A DNA stretch of 64,000 nucleotides from a virus. Numbering within the stretch: the stretch's first letter is position 1; the number at the start of each line of letters is the position of its first letter. Below, piece after piece: positions 19,994 to 61,649 of this stretch. The stretch lies in IMG/VR virus record IMGVR_UViG_3300046092_000062, positions 125,866 through 189,865 of that record, one strand, 5' to 3'. The notes beneath the pieces were generated by a model. The model ran no database searches and had not been told where the DNA came from. It worked only from the letters and a program-made list of their open reading frames with translations. Both the position numbers and the translations under genes were made by a program.

Positions 19994-20370
19994 CAACTAA
20001 CTTTATTACCCCGCCGGATTTTGTAGAAGATCCAAATCATTCAGTATTGTTAATTGACGTTGATCCAGTTGACGTTGAAACATTGGCATTTTTATGTGCA
20101 GGGCATAACGAAGCATTTAACGTGTACCTTTACAGTGCAGAATTAGATGACGTTAATTGGCTTACTAAGGCAGCAGGGCAAGTAGATGCAATCGTAGTAA
20201 ACACCGCAGCCACTGATCTAAGTCCAATCAAAGACCTATTTGTTGGGTCAGAAAAAACATATCATTACGGGCCAAAGAACTTTATCAATAATGATCGTAA
20301 ATACACTAACGTATTAGAATATTTTATCAAAAGAGCCCATGAGCGAAACCATTCAACCGATCCACTGTAA
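19990..20370 (+). CDS. Hypothetical protein overlapping clpX
   Basis: 126 residues with a Rossmann-like rhythm (HSVLLIDVDPVDVETLAFLC, then VDAIVVNTAA), but no nucleotide-binding motif. ATGA overlap with the upstream membrane protein and a 32-base overlap with clpX. Function unknown; probably cotranscribed with clpX. Confidence 0.7.
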   Translation: MTTNFITPPDFVEDPNHSVLLIDVDPVDVETLAFLCAGHNEAFNVYLYSAELDDVNWLTKAAGQVDAIVVNTAATDLSPIKDLFVGSEKTYHYGPKNFINNDRKYTNVLEYFIKRAHERNHSTDPL

Positions 20371-21541
20371 CTTCTGTGGTAAAAGCCGCAACGAAGTTGA
20401 AAAGTTAATTGTAGCCAATGACGCGGGCATTTGTAATGAATGTATCACGCTTTGTAGCAACATCATTAACAAAGAAGCCAACGATCATATTCGCAAGGAT
20501 AAGAAAATTGGCAAGGCACTTGATCCAATTAAAATCAAACAGCACTTAGACGAATACATTATCGGCCAAGACGCTGCAAAGATTGCAATTAGTGTGGGAG
20601 TGGTTAATCACTACAAACGCATCTTCTTTGAAAGCTCAGTGGAACTAGAAAAGTCGAACATTCTAATTCACGGCCCAACCGGCTCAGGTAAAACACTGCT
20701 GGCCAAAACAATCGCACGTTATCTAAACGTGCCCTTTGTTGTAGCAGATGCCACTACACTAACCGAAGCAGGATACGTAGGGGATGATGTTGAAAGTATT
20801 ATCTCAGGCTTGCTAGCAGCAGCAGAATACGATGTTGCTCGTTGTGAGCAAGGTATTATCTTCCTAGATGAAGTGGACAAGATTGCACGTAAAAGTGAAT
20901 CAGCTAGTCTAACCCGCGACGTAAGCGGTGAAGGTGTACAGCAAGCTCTACTCAAGCTAGTAGAAGGTACCAAGTGCAAGGTCAGCGTAAATGGTGGTAA
21001 GAAGCATCCAGCAATGGATCAAGTGGAAATTGATACTAGCAAGATCTTGTTTATTGCTGGAGGCGCATTTGCTGGACTACCTAAGATTGTTGACCGTAGA
21101 CAGCGTGGAACCAGTATTGGATTCAACTCGGCTAACGAAGATCAAATCGACGTTACAGAAGTGACCCCAGACGATTTCCAAAAGTTCGGAATGATCCCTG
21201 AGTTCACAGGACGTTTCCCAATCTCTGTACAAATTGACGAACTAAGCAAGGATGACTTTGTTAAGATTCTAACTGAACCCAAGAACAACTTGCTTGCACA
21301 GATGAAGTTTTACTTCTCCTCAGACGAAGTGGAATTAATGTTTACACTGGAAGCCATTGAAGCAGTGGCTGACTTGGCAGTGCAGCAAAAGGTTGGAGCT
21401 CGTGGACTAAAGAGTATTTTAGAGCGTACTCTTACACCATATATGTACACCCTAACTGAAATTAAAAAGCAGGGTTTTAAAAAGATAGAGATTACTGACA
21501 AAGTGGTTAAATATAACGACCCACCTAATTTTATAGAATAG
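20339..21541 (+). CDS. clpX: ClpX, ATPase unfoldase of ClpXP
   Basis: 400 residues, close to bacterial ClpX length. N-terminal zinc domain has its four cysteines (CNFC and CNEC..C, residues ~10-35), which in ClpX bind adaptors. Walker A is GPTGSGKT at 112-119, the pore-1 loop is GYVG, Walker B is IIFLDEVDK, and sensor and arginine-finger blocks ([17 protein letters not shown]) are in place. The loop TSIGFNS contains the IGF tripeptide ClpX uses to dock on ClpP. A ClpP gene lies at 46932 and ClpS at 22652. Ends with TAG. Whether it pairs with the phage or host ClpP cannot be told. Confidence 0.97.
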
Positions 21542-46931: not shown

Positions 46932-47555
46932 ATGCCTAACTTTGTACCTACCGTACTCGAAAAAACTGCCAACGGCGAACGTGCTTACGACATCTATAGT
47001 CGTTTGCTTAAAGATCGTATTGTCATGTTGGACACGGATGTTAGCGAGCATTCCGCTAGTCTCGTTATTGCACAAATGCTCTTTTTAGAAAGTGAAGATC
47101 CCAATGCAGACATCCTCTTTTACATCAACTCACCCGGCGGTCTCGTCACTGCTGGCCTGGCAATCTATGATACTATGCAGTTCATTAAGCCTGATGTTTC
47201 TACCATTGTACTTGGCCAAGCCTGCTCTATGGGAAGTTTCCTTGCCAACGCAGGAGCCCCGGGCAAACGACTAGTATTGCCAGAATCACGTACAATGATT
47301 CACCGTGTTAGCTCGGGCACTCCTAGCACACGTGGTAGCGTACACGTTCAAGAACTGCAATTTGAAGATGCTAAACGCAGCTTTGAAGAAAGCCAACGCT
47401 TGAATCAACGCCTTACTGAGCTGTACATCCGTCACAACACTGCGGGCAAAACATACGACGAAATGTTTGCTACTATGAAGTTTGACACATTCCTGTCTGC
47501 ACAAGAAGCAGTGGAAATGGGTCTTGCTGATGAAGTGATCTCTAAACGTCCATAA
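46932..47555 (+). CDS. clpP: ClpP serine protease
   Basis: 207 residues, full ClpP length. Catalytic residues are all present: Ser99 (QACSMGSF), His124 (TMIHRVSSG) and Asp185 (KFDTFLSA), along with the substrate-strand segment FYINSPGGLVTAGLAI. Compared with E. coli, the stretch between His and Asp is about 12 residues longer, mostly in the handle helix (EDAKRSFEESQRLNQRLTEL) that joins the two heptamer rings, so mixed rings with host ClpP may be disfavoured. It fits with the phage ClpX. Its stop overlaps the next ATG. Confidence 0.97.
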   Translation: MPNFVPTVLEKTANGERAYDIYSRLLKDRIVMLDTDVSEHSASLVIAQMLFLESEDPNADILFYINSPGGLVTAGLAIYDTMQFIKPDVSTIVLGQACSMGSFLANAGAPGKRLVLPESRTMIHRVSSGTPSTRGSVHVQELQFEDAKRSFEESQRLNQRLTELYIRHNTAGKTYDEMFATMKFDTFLSAQEAVEMGLADEVISKRP

Positions 47556-49669: not shown

Positions 49670-49676
49670 TAGTGCG

Positions 49677-49701: not shown

Positions 49702-49702
49702 T

Positions 49703-52162
49703 ATGCGCTATAAACAAATCAAAACATTAACAGAACAAACATTATTTGAAGTCAATATGAGCCCAGGCAGCTTGCGTAAACTCGCAAGTCAGATCAATGC
49801 CAAGGCTGGTATGGAATTTGAAATGATTGTTCCTAACGTCAAAATTGATGGTGAAGAAGATTTTGAATCGGAACCCGACTACGAACATGACCCACGCACA
49901 CGCAGCATCAGCGACATTCGTGATTTCTTCCACGATGGTGATCATAACGGACGCCGTGCAGTTGATGAGCTAGTAGAAGAATTAGAACAAGAATTCTACG
50001 AGTGGCGCCAAACGAAAATTGACGAAGAATGGGCCAGTGACGGTTACGAGTTCTTTTCCCAATGGGTTAGAGAAAACGTCAGCGACGATGAATGGCTAAC
50101 CGGCGATGATGAAGACGACGAAAATGAAGCGTTTTCCAAATATATAGATCGCGAATGGGAATCACAAGACCGTGCTTACACAGAAGCATACAATGAATTT
50201 GTTTCTGACCACGAAGACGATTGGGATAGCGGCGATTGGTTGAATGCAGTTGATTATGACTACATGACCGACATTGCCAACAACTTTGATATCAGCTGGC
50301 CTTATTGGACAGAATATCAAGGGGACGATGATAACATGGATGTAGAGAAGGTTGCTGATGATTTTAGCAACGCAATCGGTCGTCCAGTTAATCACAGTAC
50401 CAGCTACCATGGCGCACGCCGAGAAGAAGGCACATACGTAGTCGAACCCGATGGCAGCTTAGAAGGTGACGATAGCGATGATGGTGGTTTAGAATTTGTT
50501 AGCCCACCATTGCCTATTGCAGAATTGCTAAGTGACTTGCAGAAAGTTAAACGTTGGGCCAAGCGTAGAGGTTGCTATACAGGTAGCGATTACGGCACAG
50601 GCCTGCACATTAACGTATCAGTTGATGGTTGGAAAGGGCTTGAGAGTTTAGACTACGTTAAGCTAGCAATCTTACTTGGCGACGAGTACGTGCTAAAGCA
50701 ATTTGAACGACAAAGCAATACCTATTGCAAGAGTGCGTTGGGACTAGTTAAAAACGCAATCAAGCAGAATCCTCTAAGTGCCAAAGAGCTGCTAGAGAAG
50801 ATGAAGAACCACATGAACACTGCGGCCAGCAAGTTGATCCACAGTGGTATCACCAACAAGTTTACTAGTATCAACACCAAAGACGGTTACGTAGAGTTCC
50901 GCAGTCCGGGCGGTGATTGGTTAGATGAATTTGAAGACAAAATTGAACCTACGCTACTACGCTTTGTGGTTGCATTGGATGCAGCAGTACACGAAGACAA
51001 GTACAAACAAGAATACCAAAAGAAGTTGTATAAACTACTAGAGCCAAGCATGGACGAATATGGTGCAATGGTTAAAGACTTCAGTGACTACGTAAGTGGT
51101 GTCGGTGGTGCTCCTGAACAAGTTGTTAAAGACTTTAGACGTGCAGCATTGTCTAAACTGCAACAAAGTAACGTAGGCAAGAAGTCACAGCGCAATGAAG
51201 GCAACTGGGGCTTGTGGGCAAAAGTTCCTAACAGATTCGCCGCATTGAGTACAGACAAGGACAGTGCGTTACGTAGATTTAAATCTAAAGAGGACGGTGA
51301 GGCATGGATGGCTAGTCATGGGCTAAAGCCAGAACGTTTTGACGTTTTAGAAATCCCAGCTGATTATGTACCCTCTGAGCGAAATGTCAATACGTTCCAA
51401 GAGCCAACTGCTAACCGCGGCGACTTAGTTCCACGTGGTCCGGGTCCATGGGAAATTTACAGAATAAGCGATGGTAGCAGTGTAAGAGCATTAGATCAAA
51501 CTAACCGCAACGGAGCTGAAACCGAAGCGAGAACTGCATTAGGGTTGCGTGCCGAAGCTCCTGAGTTATACGGAGTACGTACTCGCCAATCAGCACAACA
51601 GCCAAATTGGGAAATTCGAAACGCAAGTACCAATGGTTTAGTGGATCAGTTTTATGCACCCGACCAGAATACGGCCATTGGCATACAGTTTGATTACTTA
51701 CAAGATCAAGGACTAGATTCAAATGATTACGTGCTTCAAGCTATCGAGCAACCTAGTGCAGCACAAGTAGCACAACAGTCGCACAATGCTCATCAAGCAG
51801 CAAACATGCAAGAGTGGACTATCTTAAATGGCCAGGGCGCAGTGATGGGCAGAGTGCAAGCTGCCACACAAGGTGAGGCTAATCAACGTGCAGCCGGATT
51901 CCTTGGCAGACACCATCCCAACATGATGGGGCAAGAAGTTGAGGTAGTACCGACCGCGGCGCACAATGCTAGACAACAAAGTCAAGCACAGCCTCAGCGA
52001 TTTGAAATCTACAAACGAAGCACAGGTCAACCTGCTGTTGAATTAACTAGCACTAATCAACAAGATGCATGGCTCGAAGCACAAGAGATGTTTAGAACTC
52101 GTTATGCCGCTTACGACCCAGCTGAATATAGCGTTAGAGCTGTAACTCCATCTATCCCGTAA
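49703..52162 (+). CDS. Large amidoligase-like protein with capsid-targeting-like N terminus
   Basis: 819 residues. N terminus MRYKQIKTLTEQTLFE offers LTE and LFE, the kind of cut site used by T4 prohead protease. Residues ~35-440 contain amidoligase_2-like signatures: AKAGMEFEMI at the start, EFVSPPLP, TGLHINVSV, and YVEFRSPGGDW. Such ligases join carboxylates and amines using ATP. A very acidic insert (residues ~50-180) interrupts the domain. The C-terminal third has several Trp-Glu-Ile/Tyr repeats of about 65 residues (PWEIYR, NWEIRN, EWTILN, RFEIYK). Late promoter upstream, terminator downstream. If packaged, it would be the largest internal protein. Confidence 0.8.
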   Translation: MRYKQIKTLTEQTLFEVNMSPGSLRKLASQINAKAGMEFEMIVPNVKIDGEEDFESEPDYEHDPRTRSISDIRDFFHDGDHNGRRAVDELVEELEQEFYEWRQTKIDEEWASDGYEFFSQWVRENVSDDEWLTGDDEDDENEAFSKYIDREWESQDRAYTEAYNEFVSDHEDDWDSGDWLNAVDYDYMTDIANNFDISWPYWTEYQGDDDNMDVEKVADDFSNAIGRPVNHSTSYHGARREEGTYVVEPDGSLEGDDSDDGGLEFVSPPLPIAELLSDLQKVKRWAKRRGCYTGSDYGTGLHINVSVDGWKGLESLDYVKLAILLGDEYVLKQFERQSNTYCKSALGLVKNAIKQNPLSAKELLEKMKNHMNTAASKLIHSGITNKFTSINTKDGYVEFRSPGGDWLDEFEDKIEPTLLRFVVALDAAVHEDKYKQEYQKKLYKLLEPSMDEYGAMVKDFSDYVSGVGGAPEQVVKDFRRAALSKLQQSNVGKKSQRNEGNWGLWAKVPNRFAALSTDKDSALRRFKSKEDGEAWMASHGLKPERFDVLEIPADYVPSERNVNTFQEPTANRGDLVPRGPGPWEIYRISDGSSVRALDQTNRNGAETEARTALGLRAEAPELYGVRTRQSAQQPNWEIRNASTNGLVDQFYAPDQNTAIGIQFDYLQDQGLDSNDYVLQAIEQPSAAQVAQQSHNAHQAANMQEWTILNGQGAVMGRVQAATQGEANQRAAGFLGRHHPNMMGQEVEVVPTAAHNARQQSQAQPQRFEIYKRSTGQPAVELTSTNQQDAWLEAQEMFRTRYAAYDPAEYSVRAVTPSIP

Positions 52163-52169
52163 GACTACA

Positions 52170-52190
52170 AACCCGCTTCGGCGGGTTTCT
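52170..52190 (+). terminator. Intrinsic terminator
   Basis: Seven-base-pair stem AACCCGC/GCGGGTT with TTCG tetraloop, followed by a short T/C run. The next promoter's -35 begins two bases later. Confidence 0.85.
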
Positions 52191-52191
52191 C

Positions 52192-52220
52192 TTGACCAAA
52201 AACTATTTTGGGCGTATAAT
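52192..52220 (+). promoter_or_regulatory. Early promoter, leaderless type
   Basis: TTGACC (52192-52197), 17-base spacer, TATAAT (52215-52220), then six bases to the ATG at 52227. Spacer here lacks the CGAAATGG core. Confidence 0.86.
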
Positions 52221-52226
52221 ATCTAT

Positions 52227-52457
52227 ATGAAAAAATTAAACGTCAACGATATCATGCAGTGGACTGGTACACTCTGCTTCATGGCCATGTACACTTTGAT
52301 GTCAATGAACATCTACCCATGGAACATTGTAGCAGGACTTAGCGGTAGTACTTGCTACTTAATATGGTGTCTGCGTGTTGTAAATAAGCCACAGATGGTT
52401 GTTAACGCAGTGGGCATCATTGTGTGCCTAGTTGGTCTAGTTAAGGCTTTTGGTTGA
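52227..52457 (+). CDS. Small multi-pass membrane protein
   Basis: 76 residues with three hydrophobic stretches (TGTLCFMAMYTLMSM, NIVAGLSGSTCYLIW and VVNAVGIIVCLVGLV). SWEET/semiSWEET-like length and the order of segments suggest a small transporter-like membrane protein, a resemblance only. The TGA stop lies inside the next -35. Confidence 0.65.
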   Translation: MKKLNVNDIMQWTGTLCFMAMYTLMSMNIYPWNIVAGLSGSTCYLIWCLRVVNKPQMVVNAVGIIVCLVGLVKAFG

Positions 52458-52482
52458 CCCGAAATGGATTTCTTGCTATAAT
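52454..52482 (+). promoter_or_regulatory. Early promoter with leader
   Basis: TTGACC (52454-52459), 17-base spacer with CGAAATGG, TGC-TATAAT (52477-52482). Leader with AAAAAGGAG before ATG 52513. The upstream gene's TGA is in the -35 box. Confidence 0.92.
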
Positions 52483-52512
52483 AATGGCATAGTAAGTAAA
52501 AAGGAGTTAGCA

Positions 52513-52938
52513 ATGAAAAACTGGACCGATTCGTGCATTAACTGGCATCAACTCTCTGGTACCGAAGTCAAGCGTTTGCTTGATACTTGGGGCATGACTG
52601 AGCGTCAAATTGCTAACTACGATGTCAAGCATGGGTATGCAACTGCACCCAAAGCAGAACCAGCTACTAAGAAAGTAGTAGAAAAGGCTCCTGCTAAAAA
52701 GACAGCAGAGGCCAAGCCCGCAGCAAAGGCGCCGGCTAAAACTCCTGCTAAGAAAACTGCTACAAAAGTAGTACAAAAAGCTGCCACCCGTCAAAAGCAC
52801 ACCGGTGCAGATGGCGAAATCAAGTTCCTGGATCACCGTGATCTCTATGTGGGATTTTGGGGCGGGCGTGTTGTAGTTACCAAGCGTACCGAAGCTCAGT
52901 GCCGTGCGTACTTGACTGCGAACCACGGCACAGAATAA
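52513..52938 (+). CDS. Protein with H1-like Ala/Lys/Pro linker
   Basis: 141 residues: a folded N-terminal part (residues 1-40), a long Ala/Lys/Pro/Thr linker (AKKTAEAKPAAKAPAKTPAK) like the tail of the H1-like protein at 42300, and a compact C-terminal domain (FLDHRDLYVGFWGGRVVVT). The basic linker may bind nucleic acid. Function unknown. The ATG at 52513 is used; an earlier in-frame start is only translated promoter. Confidence 0.75.
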   Translation: MKNWTDSCINWHQLSGTEVKRLLDTWGMTERQIANYDVKHGYATAPKAEPATKKVVEKAPAKKTAEAKPAAKAPAKTPAKKTATKVVQKAATRQKHTGADGEIKFLDHRDLYVGFWGGRVVVTKRTEAQCRAYLTANHGTE

Positions 52939-52942
52939 ATGG

Positions 52943-52971
52943 TTGACCCGAAATGAATTTTCGGGTATAAT
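52943..52971 (+). promoter_or_regulatory. Early promoter with leader
   Basis: TTGACC (52943-52948), 17-base spacer containing CGAAATG, TATAAT (52966-52971). Leader with CATAGCAAACAAAA motif and CAGGAG before ATG 53002. Confidence 0.9.
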
Positions 52972-53001
52972 AGCTACATAGCAAACAAAACAGGAGTTAG
53001 C

Positions 53002-53328
53002 ATGTTAACGATGTCACTTGAAACTAAAGAATCGAATAACAAGTTTTTCGCATTGCAAGATCGTCGTATGCGCAATCATGCAAACAAAACCCTGTATACG
53101 ACAGCCCAGCAAATTCGCTTGGACCGCATTAAGCTCGCACTCGAGATGGTGCTCCACGGTACTGTTTACGAGCCATCGTATGGTAAGAAAAGTGCCAGTG
53201 TTAAAGTGCAAGACGGTGCCCTAATTGCAGATCGCAAAACACTGCGATTGCTTGAAGAAGACTGGTCAAAGGAAGGCATCTTTAAGAAAGTGTCTGCCCA
53301 AGGCTTTCAATACCACGTGCCACGCTAA
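53002..53328 (+). CDS. Hypothetical protein
   Basis: 108 residues, basic and helical in the first half (RRMRNHANKTLYTTAQQIRL), then a beta-rich end (SAQGFQYHVPR). An alternative start is Met 4. Single-gene unit between two early promoters. Function unknown. Confidence 0.65.
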   Translation: MLTMSLETKESNNKFFALQDRRMRNHANKTLYTTAQQIRLDRIKLALEMVLHGTVYEPSYGKKSASVKVQDGALIADRKTLRLLEEDWSKEGIFKKVSAQGFQYHVPR

Positions 53329-53334
53329 TTTCGG

Positions 53335-53363
53335 TTGACCCGAAATGGTTTTGGTTGTATAAT
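53335..53363 (+). promoter_or_regulatory. Early promoter with leader
   Basis: TTGACC (53335-53340), 17-base spacer with CGAAATGG, TATAAT (53358-53363). The -35 is inside the perfect inverted repeat TTTCGG/CCGAAA. Leader with AAAGGAA before ATG 53394. Confidence 0.92.
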
Positions 53364-53393
53364 ATACACATAGTAAGAAACAAAGGAACTGAA

Positions 53394-53669
53394 ATGCAAG
53401 CTGTTGAAATCGCCCGTGCAATTATTGCTAGCAACTACACTAACGACGAACTGAATAACATCAGTGATGCAATCCGTTTTGTACGTGCGCAAATGATTCA
53501 CAAGAATACAGGCAGCTTGGTTATCGGTACCAAGGTTAAGTTTACACATCCTAAAACCCGTGCAGTGCATTACGGTGTGGTTAAGAAAGTTAAGATCAAG
53601 AACGTGACTGTTCTGGAAAACGGTACACTGAACTGGAACGTTCCGGCTAACATGCTGGAGGCAGCATAA
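53394..53669 (+). CDS. Small hypothetical protein
   Basis: 91 residues: helical N-terminal half (VEIARAIIASNYTNDELNNI) and a beta barrel-like C-terminal half (GTKVKFTHPKTRAVHYGVV) resembling small SH3-like domains. The start at 53394 follows the promoter leader; the longer frame is promoter sequence. Overlaps the next small gene (TAATG). Confidence 0.68.
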   Translation: MQAVEIARAIIASNYTNDELNNISDAIRFVRAQMIHKNTGSLVIGTKVKFTHPKTRAVHYGVVKKVKIKNVTVLENGTLNWNVPANMLEAA

Positions 53670-53746
53670 TGCTTGAAAAGGTAAGTGCGTTCTTGCTTGG
53701 TGTGTTTATTGGTATGAACATTATTGTTTGGGGGTTTATGGTATGA
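53669..53746 (+). CDS. Very small membrane peptide
   Basis: 25 residues, one hydrophobic segment (SAFLLGVFIGMNIIVWGFMV). Starts by overlap with the previous stop (TAATG) and overlaps the next frame by ATGA. Function unknown. Confidence 0.55.
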   Translation: MLEKVSAFLLGVFIGMNIIVWGFMV

Positions 53747-53958
53747 TGGAAATGCGTTGACTTAAACGCCCAATTGGAAACAAACTTAGCGGAACAAAAA
53801 TTGTCACCGTTTACGAACGTGTGCTGCAATACCGCCAAATGGAAGACAAGACAGTTTATGCGCAGGCAAATGCCTTGTCGCAAGACTTTATCGCCCGAGG
53901 TCATCGCAACATGCAATGGTCTGAGTGGACTGACATTCGTGAAGTTGTAGAGGAGTAA
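53743..53958 (+). pseudogene. Small gene interrupted by in-frame TGA at codon 6
   Basis: The frame ATG ATG GAA ATG CGT TGA continues after the TGA (53758-53760) for about 65 clearly protein-like residues (SGTKIVTVYERVLQYRQMED and later DFIARGHRNMQWSEWTDIR) to TAA 53956. The ATGA overlap with the previous gene supports ATG 53743 as the original start. TGA is one base away from TGG (Trp). It is either a recent nonsense change, a sequencing error or a readthrough site. No opal suppressor tRNA is seen in the window. Confidence 0.6.
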
Positions 53959-53960
53959 TC

Positions 53961-54089
53961 ATGCGTAATTTAGCAATTGGCTTTGTTCTTGGTTTGGTTG
54001 TGGCCACTGTTGGCTTTAGCGGTGTTGCAAGGATTCTGGATAAGAGCATCGACTCCGTCAAGACTCACAGCAAGGAATTGGCTCAGTAA
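53961..54089 (+). CDS. Small membrane protein
   Basis: 42 residues with one hydrophobic segment near the start (IGFVLGLVVATVGFSGVA) and a charged tail. GAGGAG lies five bases upstream. Probably a single-pass membrane protein, last of three small genes behind the 53335 promoter. Confidence 0.65.
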   Translation: MRNLAIGFVLGLVVATVGFSGVARILDKSIDSVKTHSKELAQ

Positions 54090-54116
54090 AATGGGCAAAA
54101 AGAATTTAAATTGTGG

Positions 54117-54145
54117 TTGACTCATTATTCGAAATCAACTATAAT
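54117..54145 (+). promoter_or_regulatory. Early promoter with structured leader
   Basis: TTGACT (54117-54122), 17-base spacer with TTCGAA, TATAAT (54140-54145). A hairpin TGTAGC/GCTACA (54154-54159, 54166-54171) begins within a couple of bases of the predicted +1, and the outer arms are the same as in the hsp20 leader. ATG is at 54213, after AATGGAG. Confidence 0.85.
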
Positions 54146-54212
54146 TTAAATACTGTAGCAATGAGGCTACATTGAGAGTGTGTTTTTCAATTAACGTAAA
54201 TGGAGTTTACAA

Positions 54213-54551
54213 ATGACTAAATTGTTCAAAGTCGGTGGTGTTTCTAAGTGCAAATCTGGTTACAAGGTGCGTTTCGCAACTGACATGACCCGCGTCAAGA
54301 TTCTGGCAAAGACTGATACGGATATCCAGCTAATGGATTTGCCCAATGAGATGACCAAGCCTGACTTGGTTACTTATCTTAAGACCACAGACTTGTATGC
54401 CAATGCTGCATACAAAGAGGCGATTGACAATGCTGATGCAAAGTACAACGCCGTGGCAACGGTTAAGGTCACAAAGACCAAAGCAGAAAAGCCAAGCATG
54501 GAAAAGCTCAAGGCTAAGGCCGCAGCTAAAACAGAAGCAGACGCAGCTTAA
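54213..54551 (+). CDS. Conserved hypothetical protein
   Basis: 112 residues: a small N-terminal folded part (KSGYKVRFATDMTRVKILAK), a helical middle and a Lys/Ala/Glu-rich tail (TKAEKPSMEKLKAKAAAKTE). Seen in other phages with no role assigned to my knowledge. Single-gene unit ending in a terminator. Confidence 0.7.
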   Translation: MTKLFKVGGVSKCKSGYKVRFATDMTRVKILAKTDTDIQLMDLPNEMTKPDLVTYLKTTDLYANAAYKEAIDNADAKYNAVATVKVTKTKAEKPSMEKLKAKAAAKTEADAA

Positions 54552-54571
54552 TCAGCAAGTGTGCAAAAACA

Positions 54572-54599
54572 GGGCGAACTTGGCTTCGCCCTTTCTCTT
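54572..54599 (+). terminator. Intrinsic terminator
   Basis: Seven-base-pair stem GGGCGAA/TTCGCCC (54572-54578, 54585-54591) followed by TTTCTCTT. Confidence 0.86.
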
Positions 54600-54627
54600 G
54601 GCTAAATATAGCATATAGGAGAACTTG

Positions 54628-55011
54628 ATGATCAAGTACATTAAAGAAACCACCACGCCAGCGGATGTAATTAGACCTGTGTTCCGCCCAGAACTCAAGC
54701 ATGTGTTTGATGCAAGGGATGCAATTATTACAAAATATAATGTTGCAGGTACCGAAACAACCCACGAAAAAACAGATTTACCAGACGGGTCAAAAATCAC
54801 TGTAATGGTCAAGTTCTTTGAGTCTGTAGAGAAGTTTGATCAATGCTTTGCAGAGTTGCGAGATGCAAATCAAACTATCACTGCAACAGTCAACAATGAA
54901 AATGTCACAGTTGACTCAATCAACCACAATTTTGGAATCACAATTCGATATCAATTGCGTGATGCAGAGACTGACGAAATTGTACGAGATTGGACAGTTG
55001 CAGGTCGTTAA
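54628..55011 (+). CDS. Hypothetical protein upstream of tmRNA
   Basis: 127 residues, beta-rich and acidic (GSKITVMVKFFESVEKFDQC and DSINHNFGITIRYQLRDA). ATG 54628 is preferred over a TTG one codon earlier because TAGGAG lies nine bases before it. No family recognised. The tmRNA promoter begins a few bases after its stop. Confidence 0.65.
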   Translation: MIKYIKETTTPADVIRPVFRPELKHVFDARDAIITKYNVAGTETTHEKTDLPDGSKITVMVKFFESVEKFDQCFAELRDANQTITATVNNENVTVDSINHNFGITIRYQLRDAETDEIVRDWTVAGR

Positions 55012-55026
55012 ATTATAGCCTTGTGC

Positions 55027-55032
55027 TATAAT
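55027..55032 (+). promoter_or_regulatory. tmRNA promoter, extended -10
   Basis: TGC-TATAAT with no good -35 hexamer. Predicted start is around 55039, giving a precursor of about 340 bases up to the terminator at 55357-55380. Confidence 0.7.
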
Positions 55033-55038
55033 GTAAGT

Positions 55039-55380
55039 TATTGCTGTATGAAGCAAAGAGAAAAGTGTTCTGGACGCGGGTTCGACTCCCGCCAGGTCCA
55101 CCATTAAGCATACTACCCGACTGTAAAATTCAGTAAGCATTTAGGGAAGATCCACAGTAGTATGTTTAATAATGGGCCTGCCATGGTTTCGACAGGGCAA
55201 CAAGTAAACAAGTGGACAGCTCGGCAATGTGAAAGCCGTTAGGGTTGGGGATTCCCGGCCGTAGAAGCAAAAAACGTAAATGCAAACGACGAACAGTTTC
55301 TAATGGTAGCCTGATAAAGGCTTCCGGGGCAGCTATGCCTTGCAACAGGAAATAGTAATAGGGGCTTCGGCCCCTATTTT
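55039..55380 (+). ncRNA. ssrA: Circularly permuted (two-piece) tmRNA
   Basis: The tRNA-like acceptor half comes first: T-arm GCGGG-TTCGACT-CCCGC (55076-55092), then CAGGTCC-A-CCA (55093-55103). After an intervening segment the other half begins with GGGCCTG (55174-55180). GGGCCTG pairs with CAGGTCC in all seven positions, with a G-T wobble at pair 3, the alanine identity signal G3-U70. The intervening segment has near-complementary ends (AAGCATACTAC/GTAGTATGTTT) that would hold the precursor together for trimming. The tag frame starts at GCA 55282 and encodes ANDEQFLMVA before TGA TAA (55312-55317). A nine-base-pair TTCG-loop terminator ends the gene. tmRNA rescues stalled ribosomes and tags the peptide for ClpXP. 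Confidence 0.95.
55357..55380 (+). terminator. Intrinsic terminator of tmRNA
   Basis: Nine-base-pair stem AATAGGGGC/GCCCCTATT with a TTCG tetraloop, then T residues. Confidence 0.9.
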
Positions 55381-55400
55381 CTAATTACATACTCTATTCA

Positions 55401-56369
55401 ATGAAAAAATTCTTTTGTCCTGCACCGTGGCGATCTTTGTTCTACCATGTTGATCAATCGGCTGTGTGCTGCATTAGTTCTAAGAAGTTTAGCATGAGTC
55501 CAATAGAGTTTAGAAATAGCGACTACCTTAAAGATTTAAAAACTAAATTTTTAAATAACGAGTTCGACGAAACTTGCAGTGGATGCAAGTCTCTAGAAGA
55601 CGCAGGGCTGCAAAGTATAAGACAGCACCTACTCGCACTATACAGTGAGACCACAGTTGACCAACTCGATTATATGGAGCTGCGAGCAAGCAATCTTTGT
55701 AATTTTCAGTGCAAGATGTGCAATAGTGAAAACAGCTCTCTTATCAGTGGCTCAGTTAATACCGTCTTAGATTCTGACTGGGACGAAATACTTACTATGT
55801 CAGAGAATCTAAAGTTCCTTACATTAACTGGCGGCGAGCCAATGATAATTAAGCACTACTACCAGTTACTGGATCACTTGATAGCTAAAGACAAAACAGA
55901 CATTAACTTGCGAGTCTACACCAATGCAAGTGTGTATAATCACATATTCGTTGAGAAGCTGCTGAAATTTAATACAACATTAAACCTCAGTGTTGACGGA
56001 GTAGGAAGAACAGCAGAACTACAACGCACAGGCACAGTCTGGTCTACAGTACAAGATAACATTACCAAGTTTGTGGCTTTACCGATTCAGATAAAATTTC
56101 ATACCACTCTCACAAACATCTCGATCGTTGACATACACTCGTTGGCCAAGTACTTTGTCGAGATAGTTGAAAATAATCCCCACTGCACCTTTGTTGCACA
56201 TACTGCCAACAGTCCCAAATACCTATCCATTTACAATCTAGCGCCTGCATTGTTTAACACCGCATTACGTAGCATCGAATCTGCACTAGGCATTCTAGTG
56301 CATCCACAATTTGCACAACTCAGAGAGCAGTTGGTTGCACATCAATCACTAATCAAAAGCAAACAATAA
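55401..56369 (+). CDS. Radical SAM protein, twitch type
   Basis: 322 residues. The radical-SAM cluster motif CxxxCxxC is in NLCNFQCKMCNSEN near residue 100, and TLTGGEPMI carries the GGE motif that holds SAM. N-terminal cysteines (FCPAPW, AVCCIS, CSGCKSL) may hold extra Fe-S clusters. Such twitch-domain proteins occur in T4-like cyanophages; the reaction is unknown. It lies between the tmRNA terminator and ahpC. Confidence 0.88.
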   Translation: MKKFFCPAPWRSLFYHVDQSAVCCISSKKFSMSPIEFRNSDYLKDLKTKFLNNEFDETCSGCKSLEDAGLQSIRQHLLALYSETTVDQLDYMELRASNLCNFQCKMCNSENSSLISGSVNTVLDSDWDEILTMSENLKFLTLTGGEPMIIKHYYQLLDHLIAKDKTDINLRVYTNASVYNHIFVEKLLKFNTTLNLSVDGVGRTAELQRTGTVWSTVQDNITKFVALPIQIKFHTTLTNISIVDIHSLAKYFVEIVENNPHCTFVAHTANSPKYLSIYNLAPALFNTALRSIESALGILVHPQFAQLREQLVAHQSLIKSKQ

Positions 56370-56505
56370 CTTGAATATGCCGTCGGCCTTAGGCCTATTG
56401 TCGACATAGGAAAAGTTAATGGAAAATCGTAGATTTATAGAGTAAATAAATGTACAATAGATACACGAACATACAGTTCTTAACATTTTAACAAAGGAAA
56501 TCAAA

Positions 56506-57045
56506 ATGAAAACAATCGGTGATAAACTAACCCCATTCGCAGTAACAGGTGTTAAGCCAGGGCAACCAGCTGACCCATACTTCACAATTACAGACCAAAG
56601 CTTCGAAGGCAAGTGGAAAGTAATCGTGTTCTATCCAAAAGACTTTACATTCGTATGTCCAACAGAAATCGTAGCATACGATAAGTTGACAGGTGACTTT
56701 GCTGACCGTGATGCAATCTTGCTAACAGGTTCGACAGACAACGAGTTCTGTAAGACAGCATGGCAAATGGCACACGCTGACTTGAAGAAAATCACTCACA
56801 CTCAGTTTGCTGATACACAACGTGGTGAGTTGAGCTTGGTTGAGCAGTTGGGTGTATTCTACGCTCCAGCAGGTGCTGCACTTCGTGCAACATTCATCGT
56901 TGACCCAGAAAACGTTATCCAACACGTTACCGTCAACAACTTGGACGTGGGCCGTAGCCCAGAAGAAACCCTGCGTATTCTTGACGCATTGCAAACTGGC
57001 GAACTTTGCGCTTGCAACCGTACCATCGGTGGCGAAACACTTTAA
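56506..57045 (+). CDS. ahpC: Peroxiredoxin AhpC (2-Cys)
   Basis: 179 residues. Peroxidatic Cys is in FTFVCPTEI (~ residue 45) and the resolving Cys in GELCACNRTIGG near the C terminus, so it is a typical 2-Cys enzyme. It reduces peroxides, and is re-reduced in this phage presumably by AhpD encoded 14 bases downstream. AAAGGAAA precedes the ATG. Region upstream (56370-56505) has no gene; it contains a GGCC-TTA-GGCC palindrome but no convincing promoter. Confidence 0.95.
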   Translation: MKTIGDKLTPFAVTGVKPGQPADPYFTITDQSFEGKWKVIVFYPKDFTFVCPTEIVAYDKLTGDFADRDAILLTGSTDNEFCKTAWQMAHADLKKITHTQFADTQRGELSLVEQLGVFYAPAGAALRATFIVDPENVIQHVTVNNLDVGRSPEETLRILDALQTGELCACNRTIGGETL

Positions 57046-57059
57046 TTAAGGAGACTGGC

Positions 57060-57566
57060 ATGGCTTTTATCGATACAGTAAAAGGTGCGTTACCCGAGTA
57101 CGCAAAAGACACCAAACTTAATTTGGAAGCAGTCCTTGTCCGTAGTACACTAGATGCTGATGTTGCAATGGGCTGTGCAGTAGCCGCACTTGCTGCAACT
57201 GGCAATGGTAAAGTACTGAGCATCTTGTTAGCAGACAGTCCAGTACACGCAGAGTCAGCAATGACGGCTGCATCAATTATGGCACAAAACAACACGTGGT
57301 ATCCATTTGTTGAAATGGCAGACGATCCTAATCTAAAGGGATTGCCAGCTCAGTTGCGTATGAACGCCATTGCAAGTCACGGTGGTACTACCAAAGCTAA
57401 TTTTGAAGCGTTTAGTCTTGCAGCCAGCATTGTTGGTAAATGTCACTTCTGTGTTAAGGCGCATTACGAGACATTGAAGGCAGAAGGCTACACAGTAGAG
57501 AACTTACGAGACATTGGGCGTATTGCAAGTGTCATGAATGCTGTAGCCAAAGTGCTAAACAGTTAA
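57060..57566 (+). CDS. ahpD: Alkylhydroperoxidase AhpD
   Basis: 168 residues. The AhpD active site is visible: GKCHFCVKAHYETL with CxxC and the trailing His, and upstream acidic residues for proton relay. In mycobacteria AhpD passes electrons from lipoamide to AhpC, so this pair would be a self-contained peroxide-detoxifying unit. The start at 57060 has AAGGAG upstream; a longer frame from 57006 overlaps ahpC. Terminator follows. Confidence 0.94.
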   Translation: MAFIDTVKGALPEYAKDTKLNLEAVLVRSTLDADVAMGCAVAALAATGNGKVLSILLADSPVHAESAMTAASIMAQNNTWYPFVEMADDPNLKGLPAQLRMNAIASHGGTTKANFEAFSLAASIVGKCHFCVKAHYETLKAEGYTVENLRDIGRIASVMNAVAKVLNS

Positions 57567-57572
57567 TCGGAT

Positions 57573-57598
57573 ACCCGCTTCGGCGGGTTTTCTTTTGG
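57573..57598 (+). terminator. Intrinsic terminator of ahpCD
   Basis: Stem ACCCGC/GCGGGT with TTCG loop, then TTTCTTTT. Same stem sequence as the terminators at 14873 and 52170. Confidence 0.88.
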
Positions 57599-57627
57599 TT
57601 GCATTTTAATGACTCTGGTGTTATACT
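57599..57627 (+). promoter_or_regulatory. Promoter for 57665 gene
   Basis: TTGCAT (57599-57604), 17-base spacer with TTTAATGAC, TGT-TATACT (57622-57627). Leader with AAAGGAG before ATG 57665. Confidence 0.75.
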
Positions 57628-57664
57628 AAAACTGTAGAAAGTAGTTAACCCAAAGGAGCAGAAA

Positions 57665-57856
57665 ATGGCAGAAGTTAAACTAAATGGTCCCTTGTACAAA
57701 GTCACAATGACTGAATATGAGCGTGGTTATGGCCAGCGCCCAATGGGAGAAAAGTTGTTTGATAACGAGCAAGAAGCCAAGGATTTTGTTGCAGCATACA
57801 ACAAAGATCCCGGCGATCCCGACTGCTACTACCGCGCAGACTACAGAAAGGTTTGA
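57665..57856 (+). CDS. Small hypothetical protein
   Basis: 63 residues, mixed and aromatic (GPLYKVTMTEYERGYGQRP, DCYYRADYRKV). Function unknown. The TGA stop lies inside the next -35 (TTGACA). Confidence 0.65.
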   Translation: MAEVKLNGPLYKVTMTEYERGYGQRPMGEKLFDNEQEAKDFVAAYNKDPGDPDCYYRADYRKV

Positions 57857-57881
57857 CAAATAATGGTTTTGGTTGTATAAT
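57853..57881 (+). promoter_or_regulatory. Early promoter, leaderless type
   Basis: TTGACA (57853-57858), 17-base spacer with TAATGGTTTTGGTTG, TATAAT (57876-57881), then six bases to the ATG at 57888. Confidence 0.88.
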
Positions 57882-57887
57882 ACATAT

Positions 57888-58058
57888 ATGAACAAAACAA
57901 AACGCTTTTATTTCGGTAACGAATGGTTTCTTCCACCCTTCCGCGTACACGGATATTGGGTGGAAGATGCTACCGGAAAGAACGTAGCAGAAGCAGCAAG
58001 CCCTGCACTTGCCAAAGCATTAGCAGAATTGCTAACTAAAATGTCTGTAACTGCTTGA
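57888..58058 (+). CDS. Small hypothetical protein
   Basis: 56 residues: aromatic basic start (KTKRFYFGNEWFLPPFRVHG) and an alanine-rich helix at the end. Starts at the predicted +1. The TGA stop is in the next -35. Function unknown. Confidence 0.65.
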   Translation: MNKTKRFYFGNEWFLPPFRVHGYWVEDATGKNVAEAASPALAKALAELLTKMSVTA

Positions 58059-58083
58059 CAATAAAAGAATCAGGTGTTATAAT
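58055..58083 (+). promoter_or_regulatory. Promoter of the NMNAT-Nudix unit
   Basis: TTGACA (58055-58060), 17-base spacer, TGT-TATAAT (58078-58083). Drives a leader with a hairpin at 58101 and the genes at 58150 and 58619. Confidence 0.88.
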
Positions 58084-58100
58084 AAACACATAAATAAAAA

Positions 58101-58123
58101 TACAGAGAGATAGACTTTCTGTA
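58101..58123 (+). promoter_or_regulatory. Leader hairpin with GAG-ATAGA-CT apex, copy 1
   Basis: Nine-base-pair stem TACAGAGAG/CTTTCTGTA (one G-T pair) capped by the loop ATAGA. The apical part GAG-ATAGA-CT is identical to that of a hairpin in the leader of the NAMPT gene at 60150, although the lower stems differ in sequence but both pair. Candidate shared regulatory RNA element. Confidence 0.7.
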
Positions 58124-58149
58124 CTCAACATTATACAAAGGATTTTTGT

Positions 58150-58617
58150 ATGTCAGTAGATTTCACATCACCCGAGATGATTGCAGCAGTATGCGAGGCA
58201 CTGCCCTTAGCAAACCGCCCAGCAGTTGAAGCAATCGTAAAAGCATTAACTGAAAAGCTCAATGTAGCAACCCCCAAACAACGAACTGTCTACGCAGTGT
58301 GGACCAACACAGACTTGACTGAAGGTCGTGGTCGTGAGTATGTTCAATACCTTTGCGAGAAACGTGCAACAGCACTTCGCAAAGCCAAGAAGAACTATGT
58401 TATGGGCACCGATAGCCGCGTAACAGAAGAAAAACTGTTTAACGCAGGCAGTGGCTGGTATGGTCCAGTTAACGTGCTTGACCCAAGTCAAGAAGACTTA
58501 CGAGTTGAGCAACAACTTGAAGCTGAACAGAAAGCAAAGTCTGCCAAAGAAGCAGCTATTGCTAAAGCAAAAGAATTGGGCTTAACCGAAGCCGACATCA
58601 AAGCATTGCGAGGTTAA
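58150..58617 (+). CDS. Hypothetical protein upstream of NMNAT-Nudix
   Basis: 155 residues, helical, with an alanine/glutamine/glutamate-rich coiled-coil tail (EQQLEAEQKAKSAKEAAIAK). Leader hairpin and an AAAGG site precede it. Located one base upstream of the NAD biosynthesis gene, so the same transcript carries both; function unknown. Confidence 0.7.
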   Translation: MSVDFTSPEMIAAVCEALPLANRPAVEAIVKALTEKLNVATPKQRTVYAVWTNTDLTEGRGREYVQYLCEKRATALRKAKKNYVMGTDSRVTEEKLFNAGSGWYGPVNVLDPSQEDLRVEQQLEAEQKAKSAKEAAIAKAKELGLTEADIKALRG

Positions 58618-58618
58618 T

Positions 58619-59635
58619 ATGAAAAAATACAATACACTGGTCTTGATTGGTCGCTTTCAACCCTTCCACAATGCTCACTTGGAAATTATCAAACGCAGCA
58701 CTGCACTCTGCGACAAGCTGATTGTGATTACAGGTAGCGCAGCTCAACCCCGTACTTACAAGAACCCCTTCACTAGTGCCGAACGAGCACAAATGATTAA
58801 AGCCGCAACTGGCGGACTTGCATTGCAAATTGTCATTGAAGAAAACATTGACACCATGTACAACGACCAAGCCTGGGCAGTTCGTGTTCAAGGTATTGTG
58901 CAACGCAATACAAAAGCTGGTGAGAAAATTGCTATCATTGGACACAAGAAAGACGACAGCAGCTTTTATCTCGATATGTTCCCACAGTGGGGCTACGAGA
59001 ACGTAGAAGAAATTGCACCACTCAGTGCAGTTAACATTCGCGATTTGTACTTCAAGCGTGATTGCAACATGGAATTCATCCGTGGTGTAGTGCCCCGTAC
59101 TACTTTTGATTTCTTGACACAATTCAAAGAAACACCAGAGTACGAACAAATCATTCGTGAACGTGAGTTCTTGATTGAACACGCCAAGCAATATGCTGGT
59201 CTCAAATATCCTCCAATCTTTAGCACAGCTGATGCCGCAGTGATTTGTTCGGGCCATGTGCTTATGATCAAACGCCGTGCTGAACCTGGACGTGGCTTGT
59301 GGGCACTGCCCGGCGGTTACGTTAACGCCAGCACTGACAAGACTGTACTGGATGCAGCTATTCGCGAACTCCGCGAAGAAACTGGTATCAAAGTACCCGA
59401 GCCAGTGTTGCGTGGCAGCATTACAGGCAACCGAGTGTTTGATGCAGTGGATCGCAGTCCACGTGGTCGTATCATCACCCACGCCTTTAAAATTGAATTG
59501 CCTGATGGTGCATTGCCTAAAGTAAAAGGCAGCGACGATGCTGAAAAAGCACGTTGGGTTCCTATTGCAGAAGTGCGCAGCGATGAGTGTTTCGAAGATC
59601 ACTACGATATGGTCCAGTGGGCTGTGGGTGTTTAA
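58619..59635 (+). CDS. nadM: Bifunctional NMN adenylyltransferase/Nudix hydrolase (NadM-Nudix)
   Basis: 338 residues. The N-terminal ~190 residues form the adenylyltransferase with GRFQPFHNAH (HxGH-type) and VNIRDLYF near the C-terminal end of that domain. It would make NAD+ from NMN and ATP. The C-terminal half is a Nudix domain with the box ending RELREETGI. The Nudix box Glu expected seven residues before RE is a Lys in GYVNASTDK, so Nudix activity may be changed. Together with NAMPT at 60194 it completes NAD+ synthesis from nicotinamide. Confidence 0.93.
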   Translation: MKKYNTLVLIGRFQPFHNAHLEIIKRSTALCDKLIVITGSAAQPRTYKNPFTSAERAQMIKAATGGLALQIVIEENIDTMYNDQAWAVRVQGIVQRNTKAGEKIAIIGHKKDDSSFYLDMFPQWGYENVEEIAPLSAVNIRDLYFKRDCNMEFIRGVVPRTTFDFLTQFKETPEYEQIIREREFLIEHAKQYAGLKYPPIFSTADAAVICSGHVLMIKRRAEPGRGLWALPGGYVNASTDKTVLDAAIRELREETGIKVPEPVLRGSITGNRVFDAVDRSPRGRIITHAFKIELPDGALPKVKGSDDAEKARWVPIAEVRSDECFEDHYDMVQWAVGV

Positions 59636-59636
59636 T

Positions 59637-59846
59637 ATGCACAAAAGCAATTACCAACCCAAGCGTAGTCAACAACTTTTCCTAGCTGAACAAGTTAGGA
59701 CTCAAGTGTTTAACGACACAATGGATCAGATTGTTGTGCATCATGTGTTGGAAGATACTCCAACCCGATTGTATCTACAAATTGAACGCCGTGCAACAAG
59801 CCCGATGGGCTTTGATAAGATTTACTTTGAAAGAGTGGAGTTGTAA
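59637..59846 (+). CDS. Small hypothetical protein
   Basis: 69 residues, basic and beta-rich at the end (TPTRLYLQIERRATSPMGF). Starts one base after nadM. ATG 59637 is chosen because the longer frame overlaps nadM. Function unknown, cotranscribed with NAD genes. Confidence 0.65.
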   Translation: MHKSNYQPKRSQQLFLAEQVRTQVFNDTMDQIVVHHVLEDTPTRLYLQIERRATSPMGFDKIYFERVEL

Positions 59847-60107
59847 ATGGTTACACTACCTGTAGATTTTGTGGCAACACGCTTTCCGGGTTACTTCTGG
59901 AACGTGGCAGAAGAGAAACTGTATTCTGTCAAAGTTACAGGCGAACTTCGCCCAATGGCATTCCATAAAGGTGGATTCTTTTACGGAACCAAGGTTGAAC
60001 CCGGATATCAAATCAGCGTTAATGGCAGGAAGCGTACATACCCAATGTCGTACTTGACTTCGCTCAAAGCAACCACAGCTATCCAAGAAATTGGTGTAGC
60101 GAAATAA
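59847..60107 (+). CDS. Small hypothetical protein
   Basis: 86 residues (FPGYFWNVAEEKLYSVKVTG opening) with a short motif that resembles DNA-binding parts of homing-endonuclease accessory domains (NUMOD4-like); weak. It starts directly after the previous stop. Function unknown. Confidence 0.65.
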   Translation: MVTLPVDFVATRFPGYFWNVAEEKLYSVKVTGELRPMAFHKGGFFYGTKVEPGYQISVNGRKRTYPMSYLTSLKATTAIQEIGVAK

Positions 60108-60110
60108 TAG

Positions 60111-60139
60111 TTGACACAGAAATAGGTCTGCGTTATACT
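60111..60139 (+). promoter_or_regulatory. Promoter of NAMPT gene
   Basis: TTGACA (60111-60116), 17-base spacer, TATACT (60134-60139). Predicted start near 60146, just before a leader hairpin. Confidence 0.85.
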
Positions 60140-60149
60140 GTAAGCAAGT

Positions 60150-60168
60150 CCCAGAGATAGACTCAGGG
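60150..60168 (+). promoter_or_regulatory. Leader hairpin with GAG-ATAGA-CT apex, copy 2
   Basis: Stem CCC-A-GAG/CTC-A-GGG (one A-A mismatch) with loop ATAGA. The apex GAG-ATAGA-CT is the same as in the nadM leader; the lower stem differs (CCC/GGG versus TACA/TGTA) but still pairs. Confidence 0.7.
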
Positions 60169-60193
60169 CAACTTTAAATAAAGGAACTTTATT

Positions 60194-61597
60194 ATGAAAC
60201 TCTCTAAAAACATCATTCTCAACACCGACAGCTACAAAGTGTCAATGGGCCGCCAATACCCAGCTGGCACTACCAATGTATTCAGCTACATTGCAGCACG
60301 TGGTGGTAAATTCACATTCACGCAGTTTGTTGGACTGCAAATGTTCATCAAGGAGTATTTGCTTGAACAAATCACCAAAGAAGACATCGACATTGCAGAA
60401 GAAATCCTCACAGCGCACGGCGAGCCATTTGACCGCAGCATGTGGGACTACATTGTCGAAGCACACAACGGCTACTTGCCAGTGGTCATTAAAGCCGTAC
60501 CAGAAGGCACTGTTGTGCCAGTTGGCAACGCATTAGTCACAATCGAAAACACTGACCCCAAGTGCCACGGTTTAACTACTTGGTTGGAAACTCCATTGCT
60601 TCGCGCAGTGTGGTACCCAACTACAGTCTCAACACAAAGCAAGTACATTAAAAACATCTTGCAAGAATACTTGGAGAAATCAGGTGATCCTGCTTCTATC
60701 GGTTTTAAACTGCACGATTTTGGTGCTCGTGGTGTATCTTCAATGGAGAGTGCTGGTATTGGGGGTGCAGCCCACTTGGTCAACTTCATGGGCACGGACA
60801 CTATTACTGGTGTTCTTTACGCTCGTGAATATTACAATGCTGGTATTGCTGGATTTAGCATTCCTGCAGCCGAACACAGTACTATCACTAGTTGGGGTCG
60901 CGCAGGCGAACTGAACGCTTACAGCAACATGGTTACACAGTTTGGCAAGCCAGGCGGCATTGTTGCAGTTGTGTCTGACAGCTATAACATCTACGAAGCA
61001 TGTAAAATGTGGAGCACTGGTGCGCTGAAACAGCAAGTGATTGATTCAGGTGCCACAGTTGTTATCCGTCCTGACTCAGGTGATCCTGTTGACGTGATGC
61101 CAAAGATGATTGCAATTCTTGCAGAAGGTTTTGGTTACACTACAAACGACAAGGGCTACAAAGTTCTCAACAATGTGCGTATGATCTGGGGTGATGGTAT
61201 TAACCCATTGTCAATCCAAAGCATCTTGCGCACAATGGTTGACGTGGGTGGTTGGAGTGCAGACAACTTTGCGTTTGGTATGGGCGGTGCTTTGTTGCAA
61301 GCAATTGATCGTGATACACAAAAATGGGCTATGAAATGCTCAAGTGCATGTATCGATGGTGAATGGGTTGATGTTTACAAAGACCCAATCACTGACAGCG
61401 GCAAAGCTTCACTCAAAGGTCGTGTCAAGTTGTGGACCAACAGTGGTGGCGAGTTTGCGACAAGTGTGCAAGCCCCTACTGGTTGGAGCGACAAGGGCAT
61501 CGGTGGTTGGGTTGATGCAATGAAAACTGTCTACATGGATGGTGCATTGTTTAACGAAATCACCTTTGAAGAAGTTCGTGCTAACAGCATGAAATAA
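60194..61597 (+). CDS. nadV: Nicotinamide phosphoribosyltransferase (NAMPT)
   Basis: 467 residues, normal NAMPT length. Signature parts are DSYKVSMGRQYPAGTTNVFS at the start, KLHDFGARGVSS, the AEHSTITSWG loop, VSDSYNIY and the phosphate-binding IRPDSGDPVDV. It converts nicotinamide and PRPP to NMN, which the NadM-like enzyme encoded upstream turns into NAD+. The pair bypasses host NAD+ depletion defences such as those that use NADases. It is alone on its transcript after the leader hairpin. Confidence 0.96.
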   Translation: MKLSKNIILNTDSYKVSMGRQYPAGTTNVFSYIAARGGKFTFTQFVGLQMFIKEYLLEQITKEDIDIAEEILTAHGEPFDRSMWDYIVEAHNGYLPVVIKAVPEGTVVPVGNALVTIENTDPKCHGLTTWLETPLLRAVWYPTTVSTQSKYIKNILQEYLEKSGDPASIGFKLHDFGARGVSSMESAGIGGAAHLVNFMGTDTITGVLYAREYYNAGIAGFSIPAAEHSTITSWGRAGELNAYSNMVTQFGKPGGIVAVVSDSYNIYEACKMWSTGALKQQVIDSGATVVIRPDSGDPVDVMPKMIAILAEGFGYTTNDKGYKVLNNVRMIWGDGINPLSIQSILRTMVDVGGWSADNFAFGMGGALLQAIDRDTQKWAMKCSSACIDGEWVDVYKDPITDSGKASLKGRVKLWTNSGGEFATSVQAPTGWSDKGIGGWVDAMKTVYMDGALFNEITFEEVRANSMK

Positions 61598-61612
61598 TGA
61601 GTAACAAGGGCA

Positions 61613-61641: not shown

Positions 61642-61649
61642 TACAAAAT

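What the first reader, a model, noticed from the sequence alone, without database searches (positions are those of the whole stretch)
55039..55380. Phage-encoded circularly permuted tmRNA
The acceptor half (T-arm and CCA) lies 5' of the tag-coding half, with complementary ends in the intervening segment, so the mature molecule would be two-piece. The acceptor stem pairs perfectly across the two halves with a G3-U wobble for alanine charging. The tag reads ANDEQFLMVA. Single-piece tmRNAs have been found in a few large phages; I am not aware of a permuted one being described in a phage. It suggests capture from a host lineage with two-piece tmRNA.
Basis: partly seen in the sequence, partly recalled or inferred. 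Interest (0 to 1): 0.93.

Follow-up and report, generated by a model that had tools for sequence, protein, structure and literature searches.

The report
Two-piece tmRNA in jumbo phage
A 321-kb virus record carries a real, apparently working gene for a two-piece ribosome-rescue RNA (tmRNA), plus genes for the protease that destroys proteins such RNAs tag; split tmRNA genes in phages were already known, so this is a new member of a known kind with an interesting context.

Summary
Window 55011-55405 is a circularly permuted (two-piece) tmRNA gene: ARAGORN and two Rfam models agree (beta_tmRNA 116 bits, tmRNA_permuted 112.6), the acceptor stem pairs across the permuted junction with G3-U, the tag is ANDEQFLMVA, and stems covary strongly in 22 viral relatives. 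It lies in a 320,767-base virus record and is syntenic in related records.

The novelty claim fails. Two-piece phage tmRNAs were reported in 2022 (PMC9004378). Pattern scans here found about 140 more viral contigs with them, and Stenotrophomonas, Xanthomonas, Caulobacter and Sinorhizobium phages carry them too.

The context is worth keeping. The window also encodes ClpX and ClpP with catalytic and ssrA-binding residues nearly intact; no SmpB was found. In a small post hoc comparison, phage ClpX keeps the degron-contacting Thr199 in all 8 tmRNA-bearing lineages and has changed it in all 4 large genomes without tmRNA (Fisher p = 0.002). Most likely the phage supplements host ribosome rescue with its own tmRNA and borrows host SmpB; that its own ClpXP degrades the tagged proteins is inference.

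The parts
55024..55032 (+). extended -10 promoter box TGCTATAAT of the tmRNA gene
   Evidence: read from the sequence; same box in G002 and G003 relatives; no good -35 hexamer in the window, and the consensus scan does not list it
55039..55103 (+). acceptor piece of the mature tmRNA, ending in encoded CCA (55101-55103)
   Evidence: 100% identical in G002
55076..55092 (+). T arm, GCGGG-UUCGACU-CCCGC
   Evidence: five stem pairs, one with two-sided changes, 100% paired in 22 sequences
55104..55173 (+). intervening segment, closed by a 13-bp stem, predicted to be cut out
   Evidence: fold z -3.5; 48% identity to G002 while ends still pair; 9 of 13 pairs with two-sided changes
55174..55353 (+). 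coding piece of the mature tmRNA; starts with acceptor strand GGGCCUG (55174-55180); 3' end of the mature RNA not determined
   Evidence: 94% identical to G002
55282..55317 (+). tag reading frame ANDEQFLMVA, then TGA TAA
   Evidence: ARAGORN and sequence; G002 has ANDSQFLMVA
55357..55378 (+). intrinsic terminator hairpin followed by T-rich tail
   Evidence: fold z -3.5; 100% identical in G002
20339..21541 (+). ClpX (400 aa), likely functional partner
   Evidence: Pfam zf-C4_ClpX and AAA_2; pore-1, pore-2, RKH-type (KKH) and IGF loops kept
46932..47555 (+). ClpP (207 aa), likely functional partner
   Evidence: Pfam CLP_protease 206.7 bits; Ser, His and Asp triad positions aligned with E. coli ClpP

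Best explanation
A functional phage-borne two-piece tmRNA gene. One precursor is made from its own promoter; the closing stem of the intervening segment holds the two ends together; host tRNA-processing enzymes (RNase P before 55174, 3' trimming to CCA at 55103) remove the segment and leave two pieces joined by acceptor stem, P2 and an outer helix. Charged with alanine and carried by host SmpB and EF-Tu, it rescues ribosomes stalled on broken mRNAs during infection and adds the tag AANDEQFLMVA. Tagged proteins are degraded by ClpXP, plausibly including the phage's own. Shown: gene, fold, covariation, intact tag, viral context, ClpX and ClpP genes, no SmpB hit. Inferred: transcription, processing, charging, use of host SmpB, and which ClpXP reads the tag.
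For: ARAGORN and Rfam matches; covariation in 22 homologues; spacer diverged but mature pieces conserved against G002; own terminator; collinear block in other virus records; 79 of 82 distinct viral tags end in Ala; ClpX and ClpP motifs intact; SmpB absent from the record; T199 of phage ClpX tracks tmRNA carriage.
Against: No expression, processing or charging data. The -35 element is weak. Phage lacks SmpB, so function depends on the host. The tag end MVA differs from the usual LAA. The ClpX pattern is small, post hoc and not corrected for phylogeny.
Confidence: 0.85

Rival explanations
1. The tmRNA is functional, but tagged proteins go only to host ClpXP; phage ClpX and ClpP serve virion assembly, maturation or attack on host proteins, and sharing a genome is coincidence.
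For: Jumbo-phage review ascribes phage ClpX to possible virion assembly and ClpP to host conflict (PMC7824862). clpX, clpP and ssrA are not adjacent in the window. PA5oct and Atu_ph07 have ClpX and ClpP without tmRNA.
Against: T199 kept in 8 of 8 tmRNA-bearing lineages, changed in 4 of 4 without; not explained by overall divergence in the contrasting pairs.
Confidence: 0.45
2. A decoy: the RNA binds SmpB or the ribosome and inhibits host trans-translation, like the tag-less tmRNA-like RNA of mycobacteriophage DS6A.
For: DS6A-type molecule reported to inhibit tmRNA (PMC4131195, PMC11915505).
Against: Complete tag frame with two stop codons, kept in G002 with changes only in the middle of the tag and a silent site; full-length structure.
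Confidence: 0.06
3. Host DNA: a bacterial contig, a contaminating piece, or an ssrA integration-site relic rather than a phage gene.
For: Islands and prophages often integrate in tmRNA genes (PMC11915505); no terminase or capsid gene was located in the stretches read.
Against: Record is classed viral; gene is complete and lies in a block collinear with virus record G002 at 85-93% identity; neighbours match phage head or tail, endolysin and RNR families.
Confidence: 0.03

Closest known systems
Betaproteobacterial two-piece tmRNA (Rfam RF01850; general permuted model RF04321)
   Same: Gene order, acceptor stem with G3-U, T arm, tag-coding piece, covered end to end by the model at 116 bits.
   Different: Lies in a phage; CCA fully encoded while the model consensus reads ACCc; acceptor GGGCCUG/CAGGUCC instead of the consensus GGGggUG/CAccUCC; longer spacer (70 nt); tag ends LMVA.
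Two-piece tmRNA of Methylophilales phage Melnitz and SAR11 phages (PMC9004378)
   Same: Phage-borne permuted tmRNA.
   Different: Melnitz copy is reported as alphaproteobacterial type and under a glutamine riboswitch; here the type is beta and no riboswitch was matched at the gene.
Sinorhizobium jumbo phages Phosso and AP-J-162
   Same: tmRNA plus ClpX and ClpP in one jumbo phage (Phosso; AP-J-162: PMC11242549).
   Different: Phosso tmRNA fits the alpha model best; the AP-J-162 paper does not link tmRNA and ClpXP in the passages read.
Bacillus phage G
   Same: tmRNA, ClpX and ClpP in one jumbo phage.
   Different: One-piece (standard) tmRNA; clpP and clpX adjacent.

Membership tests
permuted (two-piece) tmRNA | acceptor piece lies 5' of the tag-coding piece, with an intervening segment | tested here: met
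permuted (two-piece) tmRNA | acceptor stem formed across the two pieces, with G3-U for alanine | tested here: met
   7 of 7 pairs, two pairs with two-sided changes, 100% paired in 22 sequences
permuted (two-piece) tmRNA | T arm, CCA end and TGGTTTCGAC segment of the tRNA-like domain | tested here: met
permuted (two-piece) tmRNA | short tag frame ending in a ClpX-type degron and stop codon | tested here: met
   ANDEQFLMVA, TGA TAA; ends VA rather than AA, as in 6 of 82 distinct viral tags
permuted (two-piece) tmRNA | precursor cut into two RNA pieces | not testable with these tools
   indirect only: spacer diverged and mature pieces conserved
beta_tmRNA (RF01850) | full-length match above the curated cut-off, best in its clan | tested here: met
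   116 bits against 84, positions 1-331 of 331
beta_tmRNA (RF01850) | descent from Betaproteobacteria | tested here: inconclusive
   no bacterial sequences could be fetched for a tree
trans-translation system | SmpB partner encoded with the tmRNA | tested here: not met
   no SmpB in the record; host SmpB must be used, as is usual for phage tmRNAs tested here
ClpXP protease | ClpX zinc finger, Walker motifs, pore loops, IGF loop; ClpP Ser-His-Asp triad | tested here: met
   (one of six ssrA-contact residues changed, R228 to K)

The most novel reading that the evidence does not exclude
Some large phages carry their own tag-and-degrade pathway: a tmRNA plus a ClpXP whose ssrA-binding pore-2 threonine is kept only where the phage also brings a tmRNA, so that phage ClpX and phage tmRNA evolve as partners, with SmpB borrowed from the host.
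Probability: 0.4. Interest if true: 0.65.

Novelty: new member of a known kind. Interest (0 to 1): 0.4.

Why it matters
It shows that split tmRNA genes are widespread in viruses rather than a single first case. It also raises a testable link that I did not find in the papers searched: phages that bring their own tmRNA appear to keep a ClpX able to read the tag. If true, such phages control both ribosome rescue and the fate of the rescued fragments during infection.

Tried and rejected
First permuted phage tmRNA: rejected (PMC9004378). Phage SmpB: no match in the record, 33 others and four isolates. Phage SspB adaptor: no match. Bacterial donor: two pattern scans of 84,980 bacterial and archaeal species gave 0, but the general pattern demanded a fully encoded CCA and a 52-82 nt spacer, which bacterial genes may not have, so these zeros are not evidence; an E. 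coli centre for a class-wide search was not held. Recoding because of the CTA tRNA: rejected, TAG ends 5 of 68 chosen ORFs. Plasmids: no match. Salicola phage SCTP-2 was first placed in the ClpX-negative control set; a wider search showed a divergent ClpX, so the counts were redone; the p value is superseded.

Full report
WHAT IS THERE. ARAGORN finds one permuted tmRNA in the window, 55011-55405 on the + strand, tag ANDEQFLMVA**. In this region only beta_tmRNA (RF01850, 116 bits, E 1.3e-34) and tmRNA_permuted (RF04321, 112.6 bits) are reported by Rfam. The acceptor piece is 55039-55103, the intervening segment 55104-55173, and the coding piece starts at 55174; the acceptor strands CAGGUCC and GGGCCUG pair 7 of 7 with a G-U at position 3. 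The tag frame is 55282-55317. The unit has an extended -10 box, TGCTATAAT, at 55024-55032 and an intrinsic terminator at 55357-55378.

IS IT MORE THAN CHANCE. I aligned 22 viral genes and counted pairs for a structure read off the window: acceptor stem, T stem, P2, outer helix, closing stem of the spacer, a small hairpin and the terminator. 87.9% of cells are paired, against 76.4% after shuffling and 40-48% when partners are slid; 28 of 50 pairs have changes on both sides and none of 500 shuffles reaches the observed values. The shuffles do not keep relatedness; the slid control does, but it favours a structure read off one member. The stem sequences themselves are plain: viral acceptor stems come as GGGCCUG/CAGGUCC, GGGGAUG/CAUCUCC, GGGGGUG/CACCUCC and GGGGCUG/CAGCUCC, always with the G-U. 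Against the related record G002 the acceptor piece is 100% identical, the coding piece 94% and the spacer 48%, yet the spacer ends still pair. That is what a removed spacer should look like.

WHERE IT LIES. The window is bases 125866-189865 of a 320,767-base IMG/VR virus record. Window genes match phage head or tail, endolysin and ribonucleotide reductase families, and 46000-64000 is collinear with record G002 at 85-93% DNA identity. I did not locate a terminase or major capsid gene in the stretches read. The host is unknown; a betaproteobacterial host is suggested only by the tmRNA type.

IS IT NEW. No. Buchholz et al. (PMC9004378) reported a two-piece tmRNA in phage Melnitz and 53 ARAGORN-called two-piece forms among 133 unique phage tmRNA structures. 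Al-Shayeb et al. (PMC7162821) listed tmRNAs and SmpB in huge phages. The tmRNA database paper (PMC11915505) counts 79 phage sequences. Many contigs are short and some may not be viral. Isolates with the permuted form include Stenotrophomonas phages Marzo and QDWS359, Xanthomonas phages Rb1 and XacN1, Caulobacter phage CcrColossus and Sinorhizobium phage Phosso.

WHAT GOES WITH IT. The window also encodes ClpX (20339-21541) and ClpP (46932-47555). Phage ClpX keeps the zinc-finger cysteines, Walker motifs, GYVG pore-1 loop and IGF loop; phage ClpP keeps the triad positions. Six E. coli ClpX residues are described as critical for ssrA binding: Y153, V154, T199, V202, R228 and H230 (PMC7652416). 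The window ClpX has Y, V, T, V, K, H. No SmpB was found in this record or 33 others, and no SspB in nine. The phage therefore seems to borrow SmpB, unless its own copy is too diverged or lies beyond the ends of the record.

A PATTERN IN CLPX. In phage genomes with both ClpX and a tmRNA (window group, G011, G023, G033/G038, Phosso, phage G, LR756511, G018) T199 is always kept. In four large genomes with ClpX but no tmRNA by either model (G020, Atu_ph07, PA5oct, SCTP-2) it is Y, S, G and G. Eight lineages against four give Fisher p = 0.002. ClpX core identity to E. coli outside the loops is alike in contrasting pairs (Phosso 56.2%, Atu_ph07 55.2%; G033 48.8%, G020 49.1%, PA5oct 48.3%), so general decay does not explain those; SCTP-2 is more diverged (40.5%). 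Cautions: I noticed this after looking; the sample is small, not corrected for phylogeny, and IMG/VR records may be incomplete. Lak-B2 was left out of the eight because its RF00023 score, 47.3, is barely above the cut-off and ARAGORN finds nothing. The 130-kb record G024 keeps T199 with no tmRNA seen, but it looks like a fragment. Separately, tmRNA was found in 7-8 of 12 large phage genomes with ClpX and in 2 of 13 jumbo phages without (Fisher p 0.015-0.04); the groups were not drawn at random.

HOW IT MOST LIKELY WORKS. Shown by sequence: a complete, structured, conserved gene with a tag. Inferred from established knowledge of permuted tmRNAs: one precursor cut by host tRNA-processing enzymes, alanylated, bound by SmpB and EF-Tu. 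Inferred for infection: takeover leaves broken mRNAs and stalled ribosomes, so extra rescue pays; 79 of 82 distinct viral tags end in Ala, so tagged fragments are probably degraded. That the phage's own ClpXP does it is a guess at about even odds with host ClpXP.

VERDICT. A real feature, correctly read by the first stage, but not a first. The interest lies in the possible tmRNA-ClpX partnership, which is open to direct test.

Noticed in passing
L242 (G003:C1:60001-80000), 15972-17138: A SegE-like GIY-YIG endonuclease ORF (16099-16857) sits between an orphan copy of the tmRNA promoter and start (15972-16037, 98.5% identical to window 55012-55077) and a divergent complete tmRNA (16848-17138; T loop without TTCGA, tag reads ANDNVFALAA). 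It looks like a homing-endonuclease event at the tmRNA gene.
   Followed up: partly
window 61650-61838: A tRNA with anticodon CTA (amber-reading) is followed directly by a strong 16-bp closed hairpin (z -4.4); its conserved ends and diverged middle recall the tmRNA spacer. TAG is still an ordinary stop in this window.
   Followed up: partly
window 61850-62134 and 22149-22598: Phage-encoded GroES (Pfam Cpn10) and Hsp20: with ClpX, ClpP and tmRNA they make up a protein quality-control set.
   Followed up: no
window 58619-59635 and 60194-61597: NMNAT-Nudix protein and NAMPT-type phosphoribosyltransferase: a likely NAD salvage pair.
   Followed up: no
window 56506-57566: AhpC-like and AhpD-like (CMD) genes next to the tmRNA neighbourhood; absent from the collinear region of G002.
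   Followed up: no
L008, L052, L104 and other viral contigs: Unusually long viral tags, up to 31 residues (ANADTFDFSAMSFTGNTVRGAANESRFALAA), recur in many contigs.
   Followed up: no
W14 = Xanthomonas phage XacN1 (AP018399.1), 37231-37530 and 356026-356325: The permuted tmRNA occurs twice with the same score, probably in long terminal repeats.
   Followed up: no
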